From an uncultured Gammaproteobacteria bacterium (GTDB lineage: Bacteria > Pseudomonadota > Gammaproteobacteria > Pseudomonadales > Pseudohongiellaceae), in NCBI GenBank assembly GCA_913060695.1, contig CAJXUA010000015.1, positions 1 through 64,000 of the forward strand: a stretch of 64,000 bases of DNA. Direction: 5' to 3'. This document shows, one piece after another, positions 30,855 to 43,493 of the stretch. A program made the position numbers and the translations under genes. Under the pieces are notes generated by a model that saw only the letters and a program-made list of their open reading frames with translations, was not told the DNA's origin and did no database searches. Each line of letters starts with the position of its first letter. Position 1 is the stretch's first letter.

Positions 30855-31061
30855 CGCCTATCACGCCGCCCGAGTTTAGCCATTGCTATGCTCGGGCGGG
30901 GTACCTCTTTCGCCTTCAATCCCCCTCCTCGTCAGATTTTATCGCGCACTCATCCTGTTTTATCGCTAGATTGGCGATGCTGGGGTACACTCCGTGGGAC
31001 TTTTACTGTTAGCCATTGTATGGCCTGTGGATTGCGTGTTGTGAGCCAATCTGATTTAACA

Positions 31062-33053
31062 ATGACTGTAATCCCACCTGCAGCGGAAACTCTGGGCCTT
31101 ACCCTGTGTTACGGTCAGCAATTCCAGCAACACGCCCTGTGGCAGCAACTCAATAGCCCTACCTTGCGCTGCATTCCTATTAGTAGCATCGAACAGGCAC
31201 AGACCGAACAGGCCTCGCTGGTGCTTCTAGACCAGGCGCTACTCCAACAAGCCAGTCTCGAGACTTGGCGCGAGCATTTCAGCAATACCATAATGCTGAG
31301 CGAAGCCGCCTTGCAGGCGGATACCGACCTAGTCCTCTCCGACGGTCTACCCTCTATCCAGACTCAAAAACTCATTCGCATGGCTTGCGATAATTGGTTG
31401 GCACGCAAGCGCGAGTTGGATAGTGATTTACTCCTGCAATCTCTTGAGGGTAATTTAAACAAACTTGCTAGTGTAGGAATCGCGCTTGCGGCGGAAAACG
31501 ACCTATCTACATTGCTACGTAAAATCCTCAGCGAAGGACAGAATATTTCCAATTGCGATGCGGCATCTTTGTTTCTTGTAGACCAAGACAAAGAGTCGAT
31601 GACCTTCAAACTTACCCAGAACGACTCCATTAACTTTCCCTTCCAGGAGAGCAAGTTCAAGATCGACGCGAAGTCCATCTCCGGTTATGTTGCGCAGAAT
31701 AAAACCGCTCTGAATATCGCCGACGCCTATAATATTGCTCCCGATTCCGTCTATCAGTTCAATAGTAGCTTTGACACCGGCGCCGGTTACGAAACCATCA
31801 GCATGCTGACATTGCCAGCACTGAACAAGAAGAAGAATGTCATTGCGGTATTGCAATTCATCAACAAGAAAAGAAAGCGCGAGACTCTCTTAAACGCCGA
31901 TACGAATATAAGGGGGCAGGTGTTACCTTTCGATGACGAATCCTTTTTGTTGCTCCAAGCGCTAGCCGGCCAGGCCGGGGTCGCTATCGAGAACGCCATC
32001 CTCCACAACGACATTCAGAAACTATTCGAGGGTTTTGTTAAAGCCTCGGTAATGGCGATCGAGCAGCGCGACCCTACAACAAGCGGACATTCCTTCAGGG
32101 TTGCAGATCTGTGTGTCGCCCTAGCTCGCGCAGTCAATCTTAGCCAGCTTCCGGAGCACCGCCAGAATACCCAGAATGAGACACAGGTCAGAGAGCTTCG
32201 CTATGCAGCCCTGTTGCACGATTTCGGCAAAGTTGGCGTCCGCGAATCGGTTCTAGTGAAGGCCAAGAAACTCAGTCCTGAGAATATACAGAGCATTCAC
32301 TTCCGTATTTTATTGGCCAAAGAAAAGCTCAAGAACAAGGCATTGAAGCAACAGCTGCATATGCACAAGCGCGGCAGTTTCGACGCCGAAATAAATATGC
32401 GTATCGAGGTGAATCTGGCTCAAGAGCTGGAACAACTAGACCAGTTCTTTGCCACTATTATCGACGCGAATGAACCCCTATTGCTTGGGGCAAGCAAGCG
32501 TACCGACCTGAACCGAATTGCGGCCTATTGCAGCCCATTCGAGCGCTCTCATGGCTTCGCTATCGTCAGCCCAGAAGAGTTCTCGATGCTCGCCATTTCG
32601 AAAGGCAGCCTCTCTGCCGAGGAGCGGCGCGAAATTGAGTCTCATGTCACGCATACACGCAACTTCCTAAGTCTTATTCCTTGGACCGATGAGTTCAAAC
32701 AAGTGCCCACAATCGCCGGCGCACACCATGAGAAACTCGATGGGAGTGGCTATCCAGATGGCAAAGGGACCGCAGAGATACCCTTCGGCTCTAAGATCAT
32801 GACTATCTGCGATATATACGATGCCTTGACTGCATCGGACAGGCCCTATAAGTCAGCCGTATCGCCCGAATTCGCATTGGACATCCTACACCTAGAAGCC
32901 AAGGCGGGCACCGTCGACAAGTCGCTGATCGATGTATTTATCGAAAGCGATGCCTACAAGTCTATAGAGGGTAAGGAATATTCAGAGGGCTTCGAGGGCG
33001 ACAAGCAGTTTCGACATCACGTGTGTGATTTCGACCTGCATGAAGAACACTAG
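31062..33053 (+). CDS. GAF and HD-GYP domain c-di-GMP phosphodiesterase
   Basis: Likely cytoplasmic phosphodiesterase that breaks down cyclic di-GMP. From the chosen ATG it has 663 residues: a variable N-terminal region (1-110, possibly a degenerate receiver), a GAF sensor domain (about 130-320, with CDAASLFLVDQD and GQAGVAIENAILHNDI), then an HD-GYP domain. The catalytic HD is LLHDFGKVGV (about 386) and the GYP motif is HHEKLDGSGYP (about 554). An unusual insert of roughly 90 residues (about 415-520, charged helices) separates the HD helix from the GYP part. The start is uncertain: the frame opens at 30888 and ATGs occur at 31020 and 31062. Its 3' end overlaps the convergent hydrolase gene by 4 bases. 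Confidence 0.85.
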   Translation: MTVIPPAAETLGLTLCYGQQFQQHALWQQLNSPTLRCIPISSIEQAQTEQASLVLLDQALLQQASLETWREHFSNTIMLSEAALQADTDLVLSDGLPSIQTQKLIRMACDNWLARKRELDSDLLLQSLEGNLNKLASVGIALAAENDLSTLLRKILSEGQNISNCDAASLFLVDQDKESMTFKLTQNDSINFPFQESKFKIDAKSISGYVAQNKTALNIADAYNIAPDSVYQFNSSFDTGAGYETISMLTLPALNKKKNVIAVLQFINKKRKRETLLNADTNIRGQVLPFDDESFLLLQALAGQAGVAIENAILHNDIQKLFEGFVKASVMAIEQRDPTTSGHSFRVADLCVALARAVNLSQLPEHRQNTQNETQVRELRYAALLHDFGKVGVRESVLVKAKKLSPENIQSIHFRILLAKEKLKNKALKQQLHMHKRGSFDAEINMRIEVNLAQELEQLDQFFATIIDANEPLLLGASKRTDLNRIAAYCSPFERSHGFAIVSPEEFSMLAISKGSLSAEERREIESHVTHTRNFLSLIPWTDEFKQVPTIAGAHHEKLDGSGYPDGKGTAEIPFGSKIMTICDIYDALTASDRPYKSAVSPEFALDILHLEAKAGTVDKSLIDVFIESDAYKSIEGKEYSEGFEGDKQFRHHVCDFDLHEEH

Positions 33054-34277: not shown

Positions 34278-35162
34278 ATGACGCGACCTGATGAAAATCT
34301 CAGCATTTCCTCGCAGCCCCCAGCGGTGCTAGTGGCAGCTATTCGCAAAATTCTGCGTCCACTCGTGCGCATGCTGCTTACATTCCAAATTACCTACCCC
34401 TTCTTGGTGAATCTGCTGAAAGGCCTCTATGTAGAGGTAGCAGACCAAGAGTTCGGCATGGATGAGAAGCGTCAAACAGATAGCCGCATCACTTTGTTAA
34501 CAGGCGTGCACCGTAAAGACGTAAAGCGCCTGCGCAGTGAGCTCAGCGAAGATATCAATACTCCCAAGAATATCTCCATCGGCGGTCAGCTAATCGCTTA
34601 TTGGCTGGGTTCCAAGGAATTCTGGGACAAAGAGGGTCTACCTCTCGCCCTGCCGCTAAGAACTGCCGCAAAGATCACTAAAGAGAAGACTTTCGACGAT
34701 CTGGTTGAACTGGTGTGCAAACAGGATATTCGCCCGCGCGTTATTCTCGATGAATGGCTAAACCTGGGCATTGCCACACTCGACAGCGACAATAAGGTGC
34801 AGCTCAATACCGGCGCCTTTACACCGGAGAAAGGCTTCGACGAGAAGGCATTCTTCTTCGGTAAGAATCTTCACGACCATCTTAGCGCTAGCGCTCACAA
34901 CCTGACGGGAAACACACCTTCCTATTTCGATAGAAGTGTTTATTATGACAAGCTATCCCATGAGTCTATTCAGGAGCTCGCGTCACTCGCCAATACCGCT
35001 GGAATGCAGGCCTTAAATACACTCAACAAGGCCGCCCTAAGCATGCAGCAGCGTGACGAGAAAGGGGAAGACAGGAATTACCGCATGAACTTTGGGGTGT
35101 TTAACTATAACGCCGTCTTAAATGACCAACCGGCCGATCGCGAGGGAGAGCAGAATGCCTAA
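34278..35162 (+). CDS. DUF6502 family protein, possible HTH regulator
   Basis: A 294-residue cytoplasmic protein that I assign to DUF6502. Residues 60-92 (DSRITLLTGVHRKDVKRLRSE) look like a helix-turn-helix with a recognition helix. This is followed by GGQLIAYWLGSKEFWD (about 101-116), a middle helical region, and a C-terminal part with FFFGKNLHDHLSASAHNL and RNYRMNFGVFNYN. DNA binding is inferred from sequence appearance, not known for the family. No ribosome site precedes the ATG and the promoter abuts it. The next gene overlaps it by 8 bases. It may autoregulate through the two upstream palindromes. Confidence 0.7.
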   Translation: MTRPDENLSISSQPPAVLVAAIRKILRPLVRMLLTFQITYPFLVNLLKGLYVEVADQEFGMDEKRQTDSRITLLTGVHRKDVKRLRSELSEDINTPKNISIGGQLIAYWLGSKEFWDKEGLPLALPLRTAAKITKEKTFDDLVELVCKQDIRPRVILDEWLNLGIATLDSDNKVQLNTGAFTPEKGFDEKAFFFGKNLHDHLSASAHNLTGNTPSYFDRSVYYDKLSHESIQELASLANTAGMQALNTLNKAALSMQQRDEKGEDRNYRMNFGVFNYNAVLNDQPADREGEQNA

Positions 35163-35991
35163 AGCTATTTTAGCCATGCGCACCTATCCCGCCACCCTAT
35201 TGTTGGCCATTGTCCTATTCTTAGCGACACTCATCATCACGACCGGTTCACTCGGCAAGGTTCGTAGCGGTGGCGATGATGGCGACGGCGGCAGTGGCAT
35301 GGGCGGCACCGGTAAATCTGGTGAGTTCGGCGGCAGCGGCTTCGGTGGCACTGGCGGCCCCTCCCCCTTCTTTACGAGCACAGACTCTGAAGAGCAAGAG
35401 AAGACACCACAATTCCGCATTCCTGCAGGCGAGCAGAGCGCTCCTGTGATTATCGCGCAAGATCCCCAAGTAGATGGTTCTATCGGCACGGGTTCGCCAA
35501 GTGAGTTGAGTGAGCGCGTAATCGAGGCTATCGATAGCAACCCACTCGTGGAAGAGACACGCATAGAGATCGCGCAAAGCGCCGAGCAAGCAGAAAAAGC
35601 CATTGTCGCTGATGAGCCAAATGCCGAATTACAATTGGTAGAGCTGCAGAATGCACCAGAGCAGCCCGAGCTAGATAGCTTGCAGCGTCCGCAAAACCCC
35701 TTCCAGGATAGCGGTTCCTTACTACAAAACTCTCAGCAAGAGCGTCAAATAGCGACTGCAGTTGAGAAGGAAAGTGCCGAGTTAAGCAAGCCTCAGCGCG
35801 ATAACGAGCAGCAAATCGCGGAGACTATCGCCGTAAAACTCGACACGGAACAACAGGCCAGCGATCAGACACGTGACCGTGACGGCCTGCCAGAGCGTAT
35901 TCAGCGCCCTGACCTGCCTCCATTCCAGCGCATACGCCCTATTGAACGCCCAGCGCTAATGCCGCCACGCGTGCAGCCAATGCGCATCTAA
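35155..35991 (+). CDS. Gly-rich and Gln-rich membrane-anchored protein
   Basis: Unknown family. The 278-residue product has a membrane segment at about 8-30 (TLLLAIVLFLATLIITTGSL), then a Gly-rich stretch (about 36-64, GGSGMGGTGKSGEFGGSG), a long polar region rich in Gln, Glu and Asp (about 70-235), and a Pro/Arg-rich tail (about 240-278, with RPDLPPFQRIRPIERP). It is likely inner-membrane anchored with a disordered periplasmic body, like linker or secretion-accessory proteins. I chose the ATG at 35155 (GGGAG upstream) over 35122; it overlaps the DUF6502 gene by 8 bases, so the two are translationally coupled. Confidence 0.65.
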   Translation: MPKAILAMRTYPATLLLAIVLFLATLIITTGSLGKVRSGGDDGDGGSGMGGTGKSGEFGGSGFGGTGGPSPFFTSTDSEEQEKTPQFRIPAGEQSAPVIIAQDPQVDGSIGTGSPSELSERVIEAIDSNPLVEETRIEIAQSAEQAEKAIVADEPNAELQLVELQNAPEQPELDSLQRPQNPFQDSGSLLQNSQQERQIATAVEKESAELSKPQRDNEQQIAETIAVKLDTEQQASDQTRDRDGLPERIQRPDLPPFQRIRPIERPALMPPRVQPMRI

Positions 35992-37100: not shown

Positions 37101-38447
37101 ATGAGAACCTTTAAAATATTTGCTCTAACCGCATTATCAGCGAGTTTGGCGTCCCCGCTGGCGCTAGCACAAGAGAACACGCCTCCCAACACACAGTTAA
37201 ACGAACTCATTGGCGCAGAGCGTTACGAGGAAGCCTATGCCCTCGCAATTAGCGATCTAGAGGCTTGGGAAGGCGACACTGACTTCGACTTCCTCTATGG
37301 CATCGCGGCTATAGAGAGTGGCAACGCTAACGAATCCGTCTATGCCTTCGAACGGGTCGCCAACACCGCCCCGCGCAATGTCACACGACAGCGTGCACGA
37401 CTAGAACTGGCACGGGCATATTTGCTCACTAATAACCTGGCGGCCTCCGAGACTCTGTTTAATGAGGTGCTCGCGAGCAATCCTCCAGAGAACGTGCAGG
37501 ACAATATTCGCGCGTTTCTTAGCCTCATCGATGAGCGCCGCAATAGCCGCACGTCCACATTCAGCTTCGCCATCGCTCCCGTCATCGGTCACGATGACAA
37601 CATCAATAGCGCAACAAGCAATGGGCTAATCGATACTCCACTGATAGGTGAGATCGAATTGAATTCAGAGGGACTCAAGACTGGCGATGAGTTCTTCGAC
37701 GTCACCGTTAACATGGCCTATAAGAAGCCCTTCTCTCGCGATCGCGCACTCGACGTTACTTTGATAGCCAACCGCCATGACAATCAGTCTACGGACCAGT
37801 TCGACATAGACTATGCCTTGGGCGACCTCTCTTATGGCTATGGTAATGATAAACATCGCTTCCGACACAGCCTGCAGGTTCAGTCTGTATTCCTAGACGG
37901 CGCACGCTTCCAGAACACCTATCGTTTCAATAACTCTTGGCAGAGAGCCGGCGAAAATGGCTGGTATCAAGGCCTCTCGGGCGCCCTTTCGACGACCCGC
38001 AATGTCAACACAGCCGACTCCCCATTAAGCGATCTAAAAGACACCAATCAGATTCTAGTGTCGGGCTCACTCACCAAATTGAGCGCGAAGTTCACCAATA
38101 CCTTTACCTTATTCTATGCCCAAGACAATGCCTTAGCCTCCCAAGGCGAGCACAACGGTCGTGACTATTACGGCCTATCCCATAGCTTACTGTGGCGACT
38201 CAATGGGTCACATACACCCTATGCACGTCTTTCTTACCAGAGCACTGGGTATGACGCAAAGCATCCTATCTTCTTCAACGATGTCCGCGGCGACGACAAT
38301 GTCTCCGCTGCCCTTGGTTGGACTTGGCAGTATTCGCGCCGCCTCTCCATCAACTCCGAGATGGCATACAACGACGCCAATAGTAATATCGCGCTATTCG
38401 AGTACACACGATTCAAGTATCAATTAGGCCTGCAGTTCCAGATGTAA
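37101..38447 (+). CDS. Slam-like TPR and beta-barrel outer-membrane protein
   Basis: This 448-residue product has a signal peptide (cleavage after A23, LALAQ). A TPR region (about 30-150) follows, with helix pairs such as YEEAYALAISDLEAWEG and ARAYLLTNNLAASETLFNEVL. From about 153 to the end it is a strand-rich barrel. The junction FAIAPVIGHDDNINSATSNG and the TPR-then-barrel layout match the surface lipoprotein assembly modifier (Slam, DUF560) family, which moves substrate proteins across the outer membrane (type XI secretion). The end reads FKYQLGLQFQM. It lies 48 bases before the huge FecR repeat gene, its probable cargo. An alternative is a related TPR-barrel of other function. Confidence 0.7.
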   Translation: MRTFKIFALTALSASLASPLALAQENTPPNTQLNELIGAERYEEAYALAISDLEAWEGDTDFDFLYGIAAIESGNANESVYAFERVANTAPRNVTRQRARLELARAYLLTNNLAASETLFNEVLASNPPENVQDNIRAFLSLIDERRNSRTSTFSFAIAPVIGHDDNINSATSNGLIDTPLIGEIELNSEGLKTGDEFFDVTVNMAYKKPFSRDRALDVTLIANRHDNQSTDQFDIDYALGDLSYGYGNDKHRFRHSLQVQSVFLDGARFQNTYRFNNSWQRAGENGWYQGLSGALSTTRNVNTADSPLSDLKDTNQILVSGSLTKLSAKFTNTFTLFYAQDNALASQGEHNGRDYYGLSHSLLWRLNGSHTPYARLSYQSTGYDAKHPIFFNDVRGDDNVSAALGWTWQYSRRLSINSEMAYNDANSNIALFEYTRFKYQLGLQFQM

Positions 38448-38495
38448 TAAAGGAACTTAAGCACACTACAGCCGAACGAATGACGAGCAAAAAAT

Positions 38496-41400
38496 ATGAA
38501 CGATGATCTTACACACCGCTTTTATAAGCTTCTCAATGTCGGCTTCTTCTGCCTGTGTCTCAGCCTTTACAACCCTGTAGTTCATGCACAGGAAGACGAA
38601 GAGATTGCCGGTCGTGTTATTCGTGTCAGCGGTGCGGTCAACGCGATTAACCCTACTGGCACCCGCGTATTAGCGCGTGGTGATGACTTCTATGTTGGCG
38701 ACACCATCACTACCGGGCCCGCCGGATTTACCCAGATTCGCCTCAAAGACTCAGCGATCATCAGCCTGAAGTCCGATACGATCTTCGAGATTACCGAGTA
38801 CAGCTATCAATCGACTACTGGCGAAGAAGATGCAGCGACTATGACGTTGCTACAGGGCGGTTTCCGCACTATCACCGGCAATATTGCGAGAGATGCGTAT
38901 AACGTCGAAACCCCCTTCGCCACCATCGGTATTCGCGGCACAGATCACCAGGCACTCATAACACCTGACGGCTTGATCGTTGGCGTATTCGATGGCACCA
39001 CTTTCGTCTTCAATGACGGTGGCTCCATCGAACTGGGTGTTGGTCAAAGCTTCGATTTCGCCTTTATCGCCTCAGCGATTCTCGCGCCGCTTGGCCTGCC
39101 AGGTACTCCCGATGAATATGGCATTATCGACATCGACCCTACTGACGATGGCAGCGTTGAAGAAGAGGAAGACGACAACAATGGCGGTAACGCTGGTGGC
39201 GGTAACGCCGGCGGTGGCAACGCAGGCAGCGGCGACAGCGGTGATGGCTCGACGCGAACGATCCCTCCGGCCTCGACTGCTGCCACCATCCGCGATGAAC
39301 GCACTGTTAACGGCATAGTGCCAGGCAATACTGCTGGCACCACTGCGGGCACCACCACGAGTGCTCGAACTGGCACAGGGCAAGGTCAAACCAGCTCACT
39401 CACGATCAACCCGAATGACAGCGGTGACGGCCGAATCGTTACTTCGCCCACTCCTACTATTCCGAATACTCCAGCACCGGCCCCGGCGCCTGCGCCAACT
39501 CCTGCACCAGCGCCAACTCCGCCTCCTGCGCCAGAACCCACTCCGCCTCCCGCGCCAGAGCCCACTCCGCCTCCTGCGCCAGAGCCCACTCCGCCTCCTG
39601 CGCCAGAGCCAACTCCGCCTCCTGCGCCCGAGCCAACTCCACCTCCTGCGCCGGAGCCCACTCCACCGCCCGCTCCTGAACCAGCCCCAGAGCCTGCACC
39701 TGCACCTGCTCCTGCGCCTGAACCGGCCCCAGAGCCTGCGCCTGAACCTGCTCCGGAACCTGCGCCTGCGCCAGATCCTACCCCAGCGCTCAGCACTGCA
39801 GAACTCACTACTCTTTCAAGCTCTGACCGGACTGGCGTGTTGGTAACCCATTCCTTGTCGGAAGCACAAAGCGGTAGCGCCAGCGATTTCGGTAGTTCGA
39901 CACTATTTGGCAATACCAGCAACAATATTGCCGTACGTCCCGGTAGCGCTACACGCTCGGGTTTCTTAACCTCAGTTGATGGGCTCGAGGTACAGTGGGG
40001 CAAGTGGACCAGCGTTGCGGGTAGCCCTTCTTATTGGCAGAACGTCGCCGGCGATTTATCCGGCGAACTCTCGACGTTCATCATGGTGTCTGCGCCAACG
40101 ACAGACACAGAAACAATGAACAAGCTCGTCGGCAGCATTGAATACAGCAGTACTGGAAGCTTCATAGCCGATGAAAGTACGGGTTCAACCCCCGTACGGG
40201 AAGTGAGCAGCAGCCTTACACTAGATGTATCCACCGGCGACATTACATCGGGCACACTCAATATCTGCTTGGGCGCGACTGGTTGCAGCAGTAGCGATGA
40301 TAGACAACGCTGGGCCACTTCGTTTATTGGAAGGCTATCCAGCGGAAAGTTCTCCTCAACTCTTAGCGGCAGCATTATCGAGGAAAGTGGCAGTGCTGCT
40401 GGGCTTACAGGCGGCTTCAATGTGTTCAGCATAGACTCGACTAGAAGTGTCGAAGGGACGATTACAGGCAATATTACCGGCAACTCTGGCGAAGGCTTTG
40501 TCCTAGGCTTTAGAGCTAAAGAAGTAGGCGAGAGCACAAACTCTATTATCGGTGCTAGCGTTCTGAAGGCTCCGGCATCTATTTCTCAAGAGCAGATTAA
40601 CGCACTCACCTATAGAGGCCTCGCGATTGTCGGCCCCAATGATGGTGCCAAGAACTTGGGCATTCACATAGGCGCATCAGGCGACCTAACTAATGACCAA
40701 GCCTTCCTTCTTTACAGCCAGAACCCTGGCTTTGTTTTGCACAACAATGGCGTGAGTGCGGACAGCGGAACACTCGAGAACGACATCAACGACTATGATG
40801 TTACTTGGGGAATGTGGACAGGCACAAGCCCAGAGGTGGAAGGCGTGCCCTTGCACTATAGATATAGTCTTAGCAATGCGGCCATGTACAACAGCATAAT
40901 GGGCAAGGTAATAGTGGCAACTGGCACGCCTTCTCCAAGCAATCAACTTACGGGCAGTAAGTATTTCGAATCGAGCTCTAGTAATGAATACTTCATCACC
41001 GGCGGCGACGAAGCAGCTAATACCATCAAGGGTCAGTTTAAAATCGACTTAGACTCAGGTGCACTCACCAATGGCAAGATGGAGGTCATCAGCAGTGGCA
41101 AACACTGGACGTCGAATGAGTTTATCGGAACGGTTGCCAACGGCACCCTCCCGGTTACTAGCGTCACAGGCAATGTCGTAATAGGCGAGTCCACTGGCGC
41201 TTTCACTGGCAATTTCGCAGGCCACTTTGTTGGCAACTACGCACAGGGTTTCCTTGCCGCCTTCGACTTCAAGAAAACTGGCTCTAGCACCAATAGCTTT
41301 GGTGCGGTCTTGTTCGAGGCAGTCGAGTTAGCGCCTGTCTACACCACTTCAGACTTCACCACATTCGGCGAAAGCTCTTACTACGGTTTCGTGCTCGGCC

Positions 41401-43493
41401 AAGTCGTAGCCGACAATGAAGGCCTAGCCACTTTCGGCAAGGTATTGGTCAATCTCGACGAGGAAAGCTCTTACGAAGGAGGCACCGAGAAGTTTGTCAG
41501 CGCTGCCGCGAGCAATGCCTTGAGCACCAACACAGAGCCCAAGTTCATTATTGAACGCAACACTGCAGACAATCAGAACTATGAGCAAGGCGTAACCGAA
41601 AGGAATATCAACTGGGGTAAGTGGCTGGCCGGCGCGAAGGTCTACACGAAATTCGACGACAATCGACAATTCCAGACCCTCGATCAGACGACTATCAACG
41701 TAAACTTCGTCCCTACCACGGCCGCAGAGTTCACTAGCATAGGCAGTGTCAGCCGCACCTATGCTGGCGGCGACTCATCGGCCTTCGGCAAGATCAATCA
41801 TTCGCTTATCCACGCCTATTCCTCGGTACACGAGATCAAGTCGGTGTTTGACATCAACTTTGGCACCGGCGTTCTGACTAATGGTTTACTCGAGATTTGC
41901 ATGGATGCAAGCTGCAGCAATGTCAGCGCCGACAAATGGCAGTTCGGTTATAGCGGCACACTCAACAACGGCATTCTCTTGGATGCGACGACCGACAGCG
42001 CGAAACACAATGACAACGCAGTTACTGTCACCGGCACTGTGGTAGGCGGCTTCACTGGTAGCGATGCAGACCGATTTGTGGGCGGCTTCAACTATATTGA
42101 AAACGGCAATTCCGGCCACTATATGCGCGGCAGCTTCCTCCTAGAGAACTCAAGCTTCCTCACTGCCGAAGCTATCTCAGGTTTCGAGGAGAACGAGTAT
42201 GGATTCTTGAGCTTCTCGGACAATCTTTCTGCCGGTGTTTACGGCGGTGCGGCCCAGCGCAAAGGCAATTCTAGCAACTATCTGATTACAGATTCCCGGC
42301 TAAACAGTTCGGACTGGTATAACCGTAACGGAAGTGGCGCATCATTCCATAATGAAGATATCGACAGCTTCTTCCGCAAAGGCGGAGCTGGAGTCACAGT
42401 CATTAACAATGTCGCTAGCTTGGGCGATGTGATTACCTGGGGTAAGTGGGACGGCGAATCCGGAAGCGAAATACGACGCGACTCCCTAGGTTCAACCTAT
42501 ACCGATTTCGACGTGGATGCCTATTGGTTTATAGCCAAGCCAAGTGCCCCTACCGGCACCACTGGCAAGTGGGAATACTCCAACACACTAGCACTTCAGG
42601 GCTCTGGCAGCGACGGTACCTTGGCACTAGCAGACCTGAAGACATTTGGTTTTGTTCTCGATCTGAGTAATGGCAATATCTCCCTAGGAAAGCTGAAGAT
42701 TCAAAGAGATGCCGATTGGACCGTTGCGTTCACAGGCTCGGCGAAGAATGACACAACGGGACAGGGCCCATTCCTCTCTCTGGCCATCTCCAACGTTGAA
42801 TACAATGGCAACAGCATTGATCATTCGAATAGTTCTCTCGCAGGCATGCTAATCAACAATGGACAACAAGCGGCCACCGCGTTCTCCCTCACTAAAGTTG
42901 GGTCCGAATCCAGCCCCAATGTCGCGGGAACAATCCTTACCCAACGCGCCAGTGACGACCTGGAAGTGGATTGGGGCGACTGGGATACGCCAGTGGTGGA
43001 TAACTGGACATCGCAGTTGAAAAACGAAATCGAGACGAGCATCTTCACATCGCTGCAGCTAACGCCGGACTTCGTTATCAATAGTCTCAAAGGCAGCGGC
43101 GAGTTCCAATACGACTATGCGAATGGTGCTGGGGCAGGTTATGGATCTGCGGCAGGCGAGCTTCTTAGCGTTTCTGCGAATATGGAAGTTAACTTTAACG
43201 ACTCAACTATCGATGAAGGCCATCTTACAGTCATGACTGCTAACGAGGAATCGTGGCACTCTCATTTCACGGGTAGCTTCCAAGGAAACAATGTCACCCT
43301 TACTCCCGAGACTGGTTCCTTTACCATCGGCGGGACTGCCAATGCAGGCACTACAAGTTTCGGCGGTGCCTTCACGGGAGAAGCTGCTGGAGGATTTGTT
43401 GGAGCCTTCGAGATGATCGATGCACTCGATAATCAGAACTTCGTACAGGGAGCCTTCACCTTAGGCAAAGGCGCGTCCCTGAGTACTGATTAA
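38496..43493 (+). CDS. Giant FecR-domain repeat protein, candidate Slam cargo
   Basis: A 1665-residue exported protein. It has a signal peptide cut near VVHAQ (residue 31; no lipobox, so not lipidated). A FecR domain follows (about 35-190: VIRVSGAVNAINPTGTRVLA, then TPFATIGIRGTDHQAL), then a Gly/Asn/Ser-rich linker, a proline-rich stalk (about 324-430) of repeated PTPPPAPE units, and five repeats each with a WGxW motif at residues 501, 771, 1040, 1315 and 1493. In each repeat the WGxW is followed by a pattern D-x-x-x-G-x-L-x-x-G-x-L, then a conserved W and F-x-G, then a barrel-like glycine pattern such as GAFTGEAAGGFVGAF. The last pattern recalls the barrel domains of TbpB and other Slam substrates. 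Extracellular or cell-surface location inferred. Confidence 0.75.
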   Translation: MNDDLTHRFYKLLNVGFFCLCLSLYNPVVHAQEDEEIAGRVIRVSGAVNAINPTGTRVLARGDDFYVGDTITTGPAGFTQIRLKDSAIISLKSDTIFEITEYSYQSTTGEEDAATMTLLQGGFRTITGNIARDAYNVETPFATIGIRGTDHQALITPDGLIVGVFDGTTFVFNDGGSIELGVGQSFDFAFIASAILAPLGLPGTPDEYGIIDIDPTDDGSVEEEEDDNNGGNAGGGNAGGGNAGSGDSGDGSTRTIPPASTAATIRDERTVNGIVPGNTAGTTAGTTTSARTGTGQGQTSSLTINPNDSGDGRIVTSPTPTIPNTPAPAPAPAPTPAPAPTPPPAPEPTPPPAPEPTPPPAPEPTPPPAPEPTPPPAPEPTPPPAPEPTPPPAPEPAPEPAPAPAPAPEPAPEPAPEPAPEPAPAPDPTPALSTAELTTLSSSDRTGVLVTHSLSEAQSGSASDFGSSTLFGNTSNNIAVRPGSATRSGFLTSVDGLEVQWGKWTSVAGSPSYWQNVAGDLSGELSTFIMVSAPTTDTETMNKLVGSIEYSSTGSFIADESTGSTPVREVSSSLTLDVSTGDITSGTLNICLGATGCSSSDDRQRWATSFIGRLSSGKFSSTLSGSIIEESGSAAGLTGGFNVFSIDSTRSVEGTITGNITGNSGEGFVLGFRAKEVGESTNSIIGASVLKAPASISQEQINALTYRGLAIVGPNDGAKNLGIHIGASGDLTNDQAFLLYSQNPGFVLHNNGVSADSGTLENDINDYDVTWGMWTGTSPEVEGVPLHYRYSLSNAAMYNSIMGKVIVATGTPSPSNQLTGSKYFESSSSNEYFITGGDEAANTIKGQFKIDLDSGALTNGKMEVISSGKHWTSNEFIGTVANGTLPVTSVTGNVVIGESTGAFTGNFAGHFVGNYAQGFLAAFDFKKTGSSTNSFGAVLFEAVELAPVYTTSDFTTFGESSYYGFVLGQVVADNEGLATFGKVLVNLDEESSYEGGTEKFVSAAASNALSTNTEPKFIIERNTADNQNYEQGVTERNINWGKWLAGAKVYTKFDDNRQFQTLDQTTINVNFVPTTAAEFTSIGSVSRTYAGGDSSAFGKINHSLIHAYSSVHEIKSVFDINFGTGVLTNGLLEICMDASCSNVSADKWQFGYSGTLNNGILLDATTDSAKHNDNAVTVTGTVVGGFTGSDADRFVGGFNYIENGNSGHYMRGSFLLENSSFLTAEAISGFEENEYGFLSFSDNLSAGVYGGAAQRKGNSSNYLITDSRLNSSDWYNRNGSGASFHNEDIDSFFRKGGAGVTVINNVASLGDVITWGKWDGESGSEIRRDSLGSTYTDFDVDAYWFIAKPSAPTGTTGKWEYSNTLALQGSGSDGTLALADLKTFGFVLDLSNGNISLGKLKIQRDADWTVAFTGSAKNDTTGQGPFLSLAISNVEYNGNSIDHSNSSLAGMLINNGQQAATAFSLTKVGSESSPNVAGTILTQRASDDLEVDWGDWDTPVVDNWTSQLKNEIETSIFTSLQLTPDFVINSLKGSGEFQYDYANGAGAGYGSAAGELLSVSANMEVNFNDSTIDEGHLTVMTANEESWHSHFTGSFQGNNVTLTPETGSFTIGGTANAGTTSFGGAFTGEAAGGFVGAFEMIDALDNQNFVQGAFTLGKGASLSTD
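39466..39787 (+). repeat. In-gene 24-nt tandem repeats coding PTPPPAPE
   Basis: About seven consecutive 24-nt units encode the octapeptide PTPPPAPE, flanked by shorter APAP and EPAPEPAP arrays. The unit length is a multiple of three, so copy-number change would lengthen or shorten the stalk without breaking the frame. A long minus-strand Gly/Ala frame across it is an artefact. Confidence 0.85.

What the first reader, a model, noticed from the sequence alone, without database searches (positions are those of the whole stretch)
37101..43493. Candidate Slam-type (type XI) secretion locus with a giant FecR repeat cargo
Seen: a signal-peptide TPR plus beta-barrel protein (37101-38447) with the Slam-like junction IGHDDNIN, followed 48 bases later by a 1665-residue secreted protein whose repeats carry glycine patterns like those of TbpB-type barrels. 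Known: Slam proteins move barrel-domain substrates, lipidated or not, across the outer membrane, and translocon and cargo genes are often adjacent. Inference: this pair is a Slam system whose cargo is much larger than known haemophilins, non-lipidated, and carries a FecR domain and a proline stalk, a combination I do not recall as described.
Basis: partly seen in the sequence, partly recalled or inferred. Interest (0 to 1): 0.75.

Follow-up and report, generated by a model that had tools for sequence, protein, structure and literature searches.

The report
Slam-like exporter with giant FecR cargo
Two neighbouring genes look like a distant branch of a known bacterial protein-export system: a pore protein, and a very large exported protein built from five copies of the barrel module that such pores are thought to recognise.

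Summary
37101-38447 encodes a signal peptide, TPR helices and a barrel; 48 bases on, 38496-43493 encodes a 1665-aa FecR protein with a proline stalk and five WGxW domains. The Slam (type XI) reading holds for family and fold, although neither window protein reaches the Pfam models. Of 51 barrel-family members scanned, 18 match SlipAM and 21 TPR_Slam (E<=0.1). Profile comparison favours canonical Slam (barrels alone 99.1%) over the BBP2_2 porins (96.8%); with the window's clade alone it does not decide (34.9 against 33.0%). The predicted barrel has 14 long strands. The last WGxW domain's first 21 PDB matches are NHBA, TbpB, fHbp and hemophilins, recalled as Slam cargos. In 60 fetched relatives the next gene is FecR in 53, absent in 5, off the contig in 2. 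Four other proteins fuse FecR to the translocon's N-terminus, so FecR probably works in the periplasm, perhaps as an anchor. Multi-barrel, proline-rich type XI cargo is already described; FecR cargo was not found in the searches made. Secretion is untested. Verdict: new variant of a known kind, a FecR-cargo branch of type XI secretion with a giant five-barrel form in the window's clade.

The parts
37101..38447 (+). Slam-like translocon (P0001, 448 aa): signal peptide, TPR helices, 14-strand barrel
37188..37544 (+). periplasmic TPR helices (about residues 30-148)
   Evidence: Pfam TPR_19; helices in the model; TPR parts alone against canonical Slam 97.1%
37557..38441 (+). outer-membrane barrel, 14 long strands (residues 153-447)
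   Evidence: model with mean pLDDT 92.2; barrels alone against canonical Slam 99.1%
38496..43493 (+). proposed cargo (P0002, 1665 aa): signal peptide, FecR, proline stalk, five barrel domains; no lipobox pattern
38700..38999 (+). FecR domain (residues 69-168)
   Evidence: Pfam PF04773 E 2e-11
39432..39806 (+). proline-rich stalk (about residues 313-437)
39972..40568 (+). WGxW barrel domain 1
40788..41297 (+). WGxW barrel domain 2
41592..42149 (+). WGxW barrel domain 3
42426..42947 (+). WGxW barrel domain 4
42939..43469 (+). WGxW barrel domain 5, C-terminal; proposed export signal
   Evidence: model of 42939-43490, mean pLDDT 82.7; NHBA, TbpB, fHbp and hemophilin as first 21 PDB matches

Best explanation
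The pair is a type XI (Slam/DUF560-like) secretion unit of a divergent, FecR-associated branch. The barrel protein sits in the outer membrane with its TPR domain in the periplasm. The 1665-aa partner leaves the inner membrane by Sec, unlipidated; its C-terminal TbpB-like barrel is recognised by the translocon, and the five barrel domains are passed to the cell surface, where they act as binding modules or an adhesin. Shown here: the gene pair and its conservation, family and fold relations of both proteins, the C-terminal place of the barrel. Inferred: export itself, its direction, surface location and what the domains bind. A further, weaker inference: the N-terminal FecR domain stays in the periplasm against the TPR domain, with the proline stalk leading through or beside the pore, so that FecR anchors the unlipidated protein.
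For: 18 of 51 family members match SlipAM (best 2e-11), 21 of 51 TPR_Slam; four relatives above the PF04575 cut-off, each with FecR next door; the family's profile finds canonical Slams L065 and L059 at 1.8e-23 and 1.3e-17 in a small set. hhalign to 13 canonical Slams 99.8%, barrels alone 99.1% over 278 columns; reversed and shuffled controls at most 2.0%. 14 long strands. C-terminal domain: first 21 PDB matches are NHBA, TbpB, fHbp, hemophilin; TbpB_B_D in 9 of 38 and NCBIfam slam_lipo in 3 of 38; profile to canonical TbpB_B_D 92.7%, controls at most 0.4%. FecR gene next in 53 of 60 loci. Last WGxW 164-193 residues from the C-terminus in 33 of 33 complete cargos that have one. The domain occurs in 17 of 194 same-order genomes, 15 of which carry the barrel protein, against 32 of 194 overall (not corrected for kinship). 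FecR fused to the translocon N-terminus in four proteins 25-41% identical to each other.
Against: No secretion data. The window proteins alone miss both defining models. With the 21 window-clade sequences only, Slam and BBP2_2 score alike (34.9 and 33.0%), and the clade's cargo domain reaches 51.8%. BBP2_2 is matched by 33 of 51 members and DUF2860 by 18. The best PDB match of the translocon model is BcsC, a cellulose exporter, then porins. Cargo TM-scores are modest: 0.59/0.70 at best. Five of 60 loci have no adjacent cargo. Some partners are FecR-only with no barrel domain.
Confidence: 0.75

Rival explanations
1. A trans-envelope signalling set: the TPR-barrel is an outer-membrane receptor and the FecR protein stays wholly in the periplasm, its barrel domains binding ligands there and its FecR domain speaking to CHASE2 cyclases or kinases.
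For: CHASE2 genes in 12 of 60 and 6 of 26 fetched loci (four of these loci supplied the model); in the window's own genome a second locus has FecR, CHASE2-adenylate cyclase and a TPR-barrel relative in a row. FecR-only partners exist, four in the first set read (L034, L037, L038, L039) and L122. FecR with LysM next to a CHASE2 kinase is in print (PMC5192318, passages).
Against: No CHASE2 in the window. The domain's fold neighbours are surface proteins. The barrel domain always ends the protein, as in known cargo (PMC12282271 section 15).
Confidence: 0.15
2. A polysaccharide or small-solute export porin of the BcsC/PgaA/EpsL or BBP2_2 kind, with the FecR protein as an accessory.
For: BcsC is the first PDB match; BBP2_2 in 33 of 51, NCBIfam EpsL in 27 of 51 members.
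Against: Profile comparison prefers Slam for the whole family; the barrel has 14 long strands where PgaA is said to have 16 (PMC8406197 passages); seven neighbouring genes scanned hold no glycosyltransferase; the partner carries a cargo-type barrel.
Confidence: 0.08
3. Homology without function: a Slam-derived barrel that now only assembles or anchors the FecR protein in the outer membrane from the periplasmic side.
For: Unlipidated cargo; FecR fused to the translocon in four proteins; marine type XI clusters with lost cargo have been suggested (PMC12282271 passages).
Against: The cargo-type C-terminal barrel is kept in 33 of 38 complete cargos surveyed, four more being dropped for want of the search motif.
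Confidence: 0.1

Closest known systems
Type XI secretion, Slam/NilB (DUF560, PF04575), cluster 1
   Same: Signal peptide, periplasmic TPR, 14-strand barrel, adjacent cargo gene with C-terminal TbpB-like barrel (PMC8406197 and PMC12282271 passages).
   Different: Sequence too distant for the window protein to match PF04575; partner carries FecR; no lipobox pattern in 38 cargos surveyed.
Sphingomonas and Psychrobacter multi-TbpBBD surface proteins (PMC12282271, section 15)
   Same: Proline-rich N-terminal region followed by two to three handle-barrel copies.
   Different: Window cargo has FecR and five barrels; clade relatives carry up to six WGxW motifs.
TbpB, NHBA, fHbp, hemophilin
   Same: Fold of the last WGxW domain.
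   Different: Sequence identity 7-17% in the first 21 matches; ligand unknown.
FecR/CHASE2 operons (BiofilmReg, PMC5192318 passages)
   Same: Signal-peptide FecR protein in an operon; CHASE2 next to some relatives of the pair.
   Different: There FecR is joined to LysM; a search for tetratricopeptide, TPR and outer membrane in that paper gave no occurrence.

Membership tests
Type XI outer-membrane protein (Slam/DUF560) | match to PF04575 over its curated cut-off | tested here: not met
   Window protein: no PF04575 match at E<=1. Relatives: 18 of 51 at E<=0.1, four over the cut-off.
Type XI outer-membrane protein (Slam/DUF560) | periplasmic TPR plus 14-strand barrel | tested here: met
   Model with 14 strands of 12-17 residues, mean pLDDT 92.2.
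Type XI outer-membrane protein (Slam/DUF560) | common descent with canonical Slam | tested here: met
   hhalign 99.8% whole, 99.1% barrels, controls at most 2.0%. Window clade alone 34.9%. No tree was built.
Type XI outer-membrane protein (Slam/DUF560) | moves cargo across the outer membrane | not testable with these tools
   Needs an export assay.
Type XI cargo | C-terminal TbpB/lipoprotein-C-like barrel fold | tested here: met
   First 21 PDB matches are such proteins, three with E<=0.001.
Type XI cargo | match to TbpB_B_D (PF01298) | tested here: not met
   Window domain: none at E<=1; 9 of 38 relatives' domains match, best 1e-7.
FecR sigma-factor regulator | FecR domain | tested here: met
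   PF04773 E 2e-11.
FecR sigma-factor regulator | cytoplasmic sigma-binding N-terminus and adjacent sigma gene (recalled) | tested here: not met
   FecR starts at residue 69 after a signal-like stretch; no other Pfam match within the cut-off; no sigma factor among seven neighbours scanned.
BBP2_2 porin | match to PF10082 over cut-off | tested here: inconclusive
   Window 22.9 bits, cut-off 23.7; barrels 96.8% by hhalign against 8 sequences.

The most novel reading that the evidence does not exclude
A separate branch of type XI secretion in which the unlipidated cargo is not released: its FecR domain stays in the periplasm on the translocon's TPR domain as an anchor, the proline stalk leads outward, and several TbpB-like barrels are displayed outside; where CHASE2 cyclases or kinases stand nearby, the same FecR domain reports cargo state across the envelope. 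The branch reaches beyond Proteobacteria.
Probability: 0.25. Interest if true: 0.8.

Novelty: new variant of a known kind. Interest (0 to 1): 0.6.

Why it matters
Outside cluster 1, type XI translocons had no characterised members in the 2021 survey (PMC8406197 section 5), and marine cluster 3 translocons seldom sit beside recognisable cargo (PMC12282271 passages). This branch supplies a conserved translocon-cargo pair that can be tested directly. Loci whose record titles name Verrucomicrobia, Lentisphaerae, PVC and Helicobacteraceae bins would extend the kind beyond Proteobacteria if the binning is right. The FecR link suggests a way to hold unlipidated cargo at the surface.

Tried and rejected
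Sequence search of P0001 in the PDB gave nothing. P0001 alone in Pfam and NCBIfam pointed to TPR, DUF2860 and BBP2_2, not Slam; I rejected the porin reading only after the family-level comparison. DUF2860 was not compared profile to profile. The second structural aligner was not available, so fold claims rest on Foldseek. Promoter and terminator scans gave no more sites than shuffles, so the operon claim rests on strand, spacing and conservation. A weak NCBIfam match of the FecR region to the LapA retention module (24.7 bits, cut-off 50) is only a lead for the anchor idea. My early note that all four PF04575-positive relatives had FecR neighbours rested at first on two of them; one search then confirmed all four.

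Rows left out before counts: A3 took 50 of 53 unfused candidates (three without ATG start) plus the window; A4 took 37 of 88 units, last or single ones, plus the window. 13 of 24 Slam, 8 of 15 BBP2_2 and 18 of 30 TbpB_B_D loci were usable for profiles. Four cargos were dropped for want of an IRGT motif.
Full report
What is there. The first has a signal-like start, TPR matches and the GHDDNIN junction; the second has FecR at residues 69-168, a proline-rich stretch at about residues 313-437 with up to 64% proline and five WGxW domains. Neither N-terminus shows a lipobox pattern.

The translocon. By itself P0001 matches TPR_19 and DUF2860 over their cut-offs, BBP2_2 just under (22.9 against 23.7 bits), and no Slam model at E<=1. 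Its own genome has no PF04575 match over the cut-off. Relatives change the picture: a PF04575 search of 185 genomes of the class found five genomes at E<=1e-8. Four of them hold P0001-type proteins (E 4e-113 to 2e-139 to the family profile), each with a FecR gene beside it; canonical Slams L065 and L059 are also found by that profile, at 1.8e-23 and 1.3e-17. Of 51 members scanned, SlipAM is matched by 18, TPR_Slam by 21, BBP2_2 by 33 and DUF2860 by 18 at E<=0.1. Against 13 canonical Slams hhalign gives 99.8% over 388 columns; barrels alone 99.1%, TPR parts alone 97.1%. Against 8 BBP2_2 proteins, barrels alone give 96.8%. Reversed and shuffled Slam barrels give at most 2.0%. With only the 21 closest sequences the barrel gives 34.9% to Slam and 33.0% to BBP2_2, so the window's clade alone does not decide. 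The E-values are for single comparisons. The AlphaFold2 model has mean pLDDT 92.2 and 14 strands of 12-17 residues after the TPR helices, plus two short loop strands. Its PDB matches are led by BcsC, then FadL, CymA and other porins; no Slam is among the 50 rows shown.

The cargo. The model of the last WGxW domain has mean pLDDT 82.7. Its first 21 PDB rows are NHBA, TbpB, HphA, fHbp and hemophilin chains; row 22 is a nitrophorin. Only three rows reach E<=0.001 and TM-scores are modest (0.59 by query, 0.70 by target at best). That these are Slam cargos is recalled, in part supported by passages. TbpB_B_D is matched by 9 of 38 C-terminal domains and is the only Pfam family with more than one; NCBIfam slam_lipo by 3 of 38. 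Profile to profile with 18 canonical domains gives 92.7%, controls at most 0.4%; the window clade alone 51.8%.

Neighbourhood. One scan of genome contigs gave 60 loci. A FecR gene follows within 400 bases in 47; on inspection it follows in six more, where a start was called too early or the barrel gene is broken; five lack it (L073, L079, L083, L085, L088) and two end at the contig edge. In four of those five genomes a WGxW domain lies elsewhere: one is an intact unlinked FecR cargo, two genomes show only broken pieces, one was not looked at further. Across 194 same-order genomes the domain is found in 17, of which 15 carry the barrel protein, against 32 of 194 overall (Fisher p 7e-12, kinship not corrected); the more sensitive family profile again gives 15 of 17. 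Some loci have two or three FecR cargos in a row (L046, L049). Complete cargos in other lineages mostly carry one WGxW domain; counts of four to six belong mainly to the window's clade, whose members also carry the proline stalk: 13 of 38 surveyed cargos reach 46% proline or more in 50 residues, all in that clade, the rest at most 34%.

How it may work. The fold, the C-terminal place of the barrel (33 of 33) and the conserved pairing make export of the FecR protein by the barrel protein the best reading. The FecR domain is found fused to the N-terminus of the translocon in four proteins, 25-41% identical to each other, which puts FecR on the periplasmic side there. From this I infer, without proof, that FecR in the cargo also stays in the periplasm and anchors it. 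FecR-only partners and CHASE2 neighbours (12 of 60 and 6 of 26 loci) speak for a signalling side in part of the family and are the main ground for the chief rival. The window shows no CHASE2 gene, but its genome has a second locus with FecR, CHASE2-cyclase and a TPR-barrel relative.

What is known. Cargo with several TbpBBD domains and proline-threonine repeats is in print (PMC12282271, section 15 read). In the passages searched, FecR has no occurrence in PMC12282271 or PMC8406197. Searches for FecR with DUF560 or with the Slam name gave no paper on such cargo; one listed paper has a classical FecR regulator beside a TbpB/Slam operon (PMC11233812, passages), another only separate mentions. The library lacks most subscription papers and all bioRxiv preprints.

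Noticed in passing
L057 (own genome, contig C6), 3504-8365: Second locus in the window's genome: FecR protein with one WGxW, CHASE2-adenylate cyclase, then a TPR-barrel relative.
   Followed up: partly
L048, L050, L115, L116: FecR domain fused to the N-terminus of the TPR-barrel protein, with a further FecR gene downstream.
   Followed up: partly
L073, L079, L083, L085, L088: Translocon kept without adjacent cargo, although msrB and aminotransferase neighbours are conserved.
   Followed up: partly
L119, L120, L122, L124-L126: Pairs in records titled PVC, Verrucomicrobia, Lentisphaerae and Helicobacteraceae; binning not checked.
   Followed up: no
window 30888-33053: GAF plus HD-GYP-type protein upstream; similar genes in 17 of 60 relatives' loci and in L034.
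   Followed up: no
window 34278-35991: DUF6502 gene overlapping a 289-aa glycine- and proline-rich gene without Pfam match, both conserved in 15 of 60 loci.
   Followed up: no
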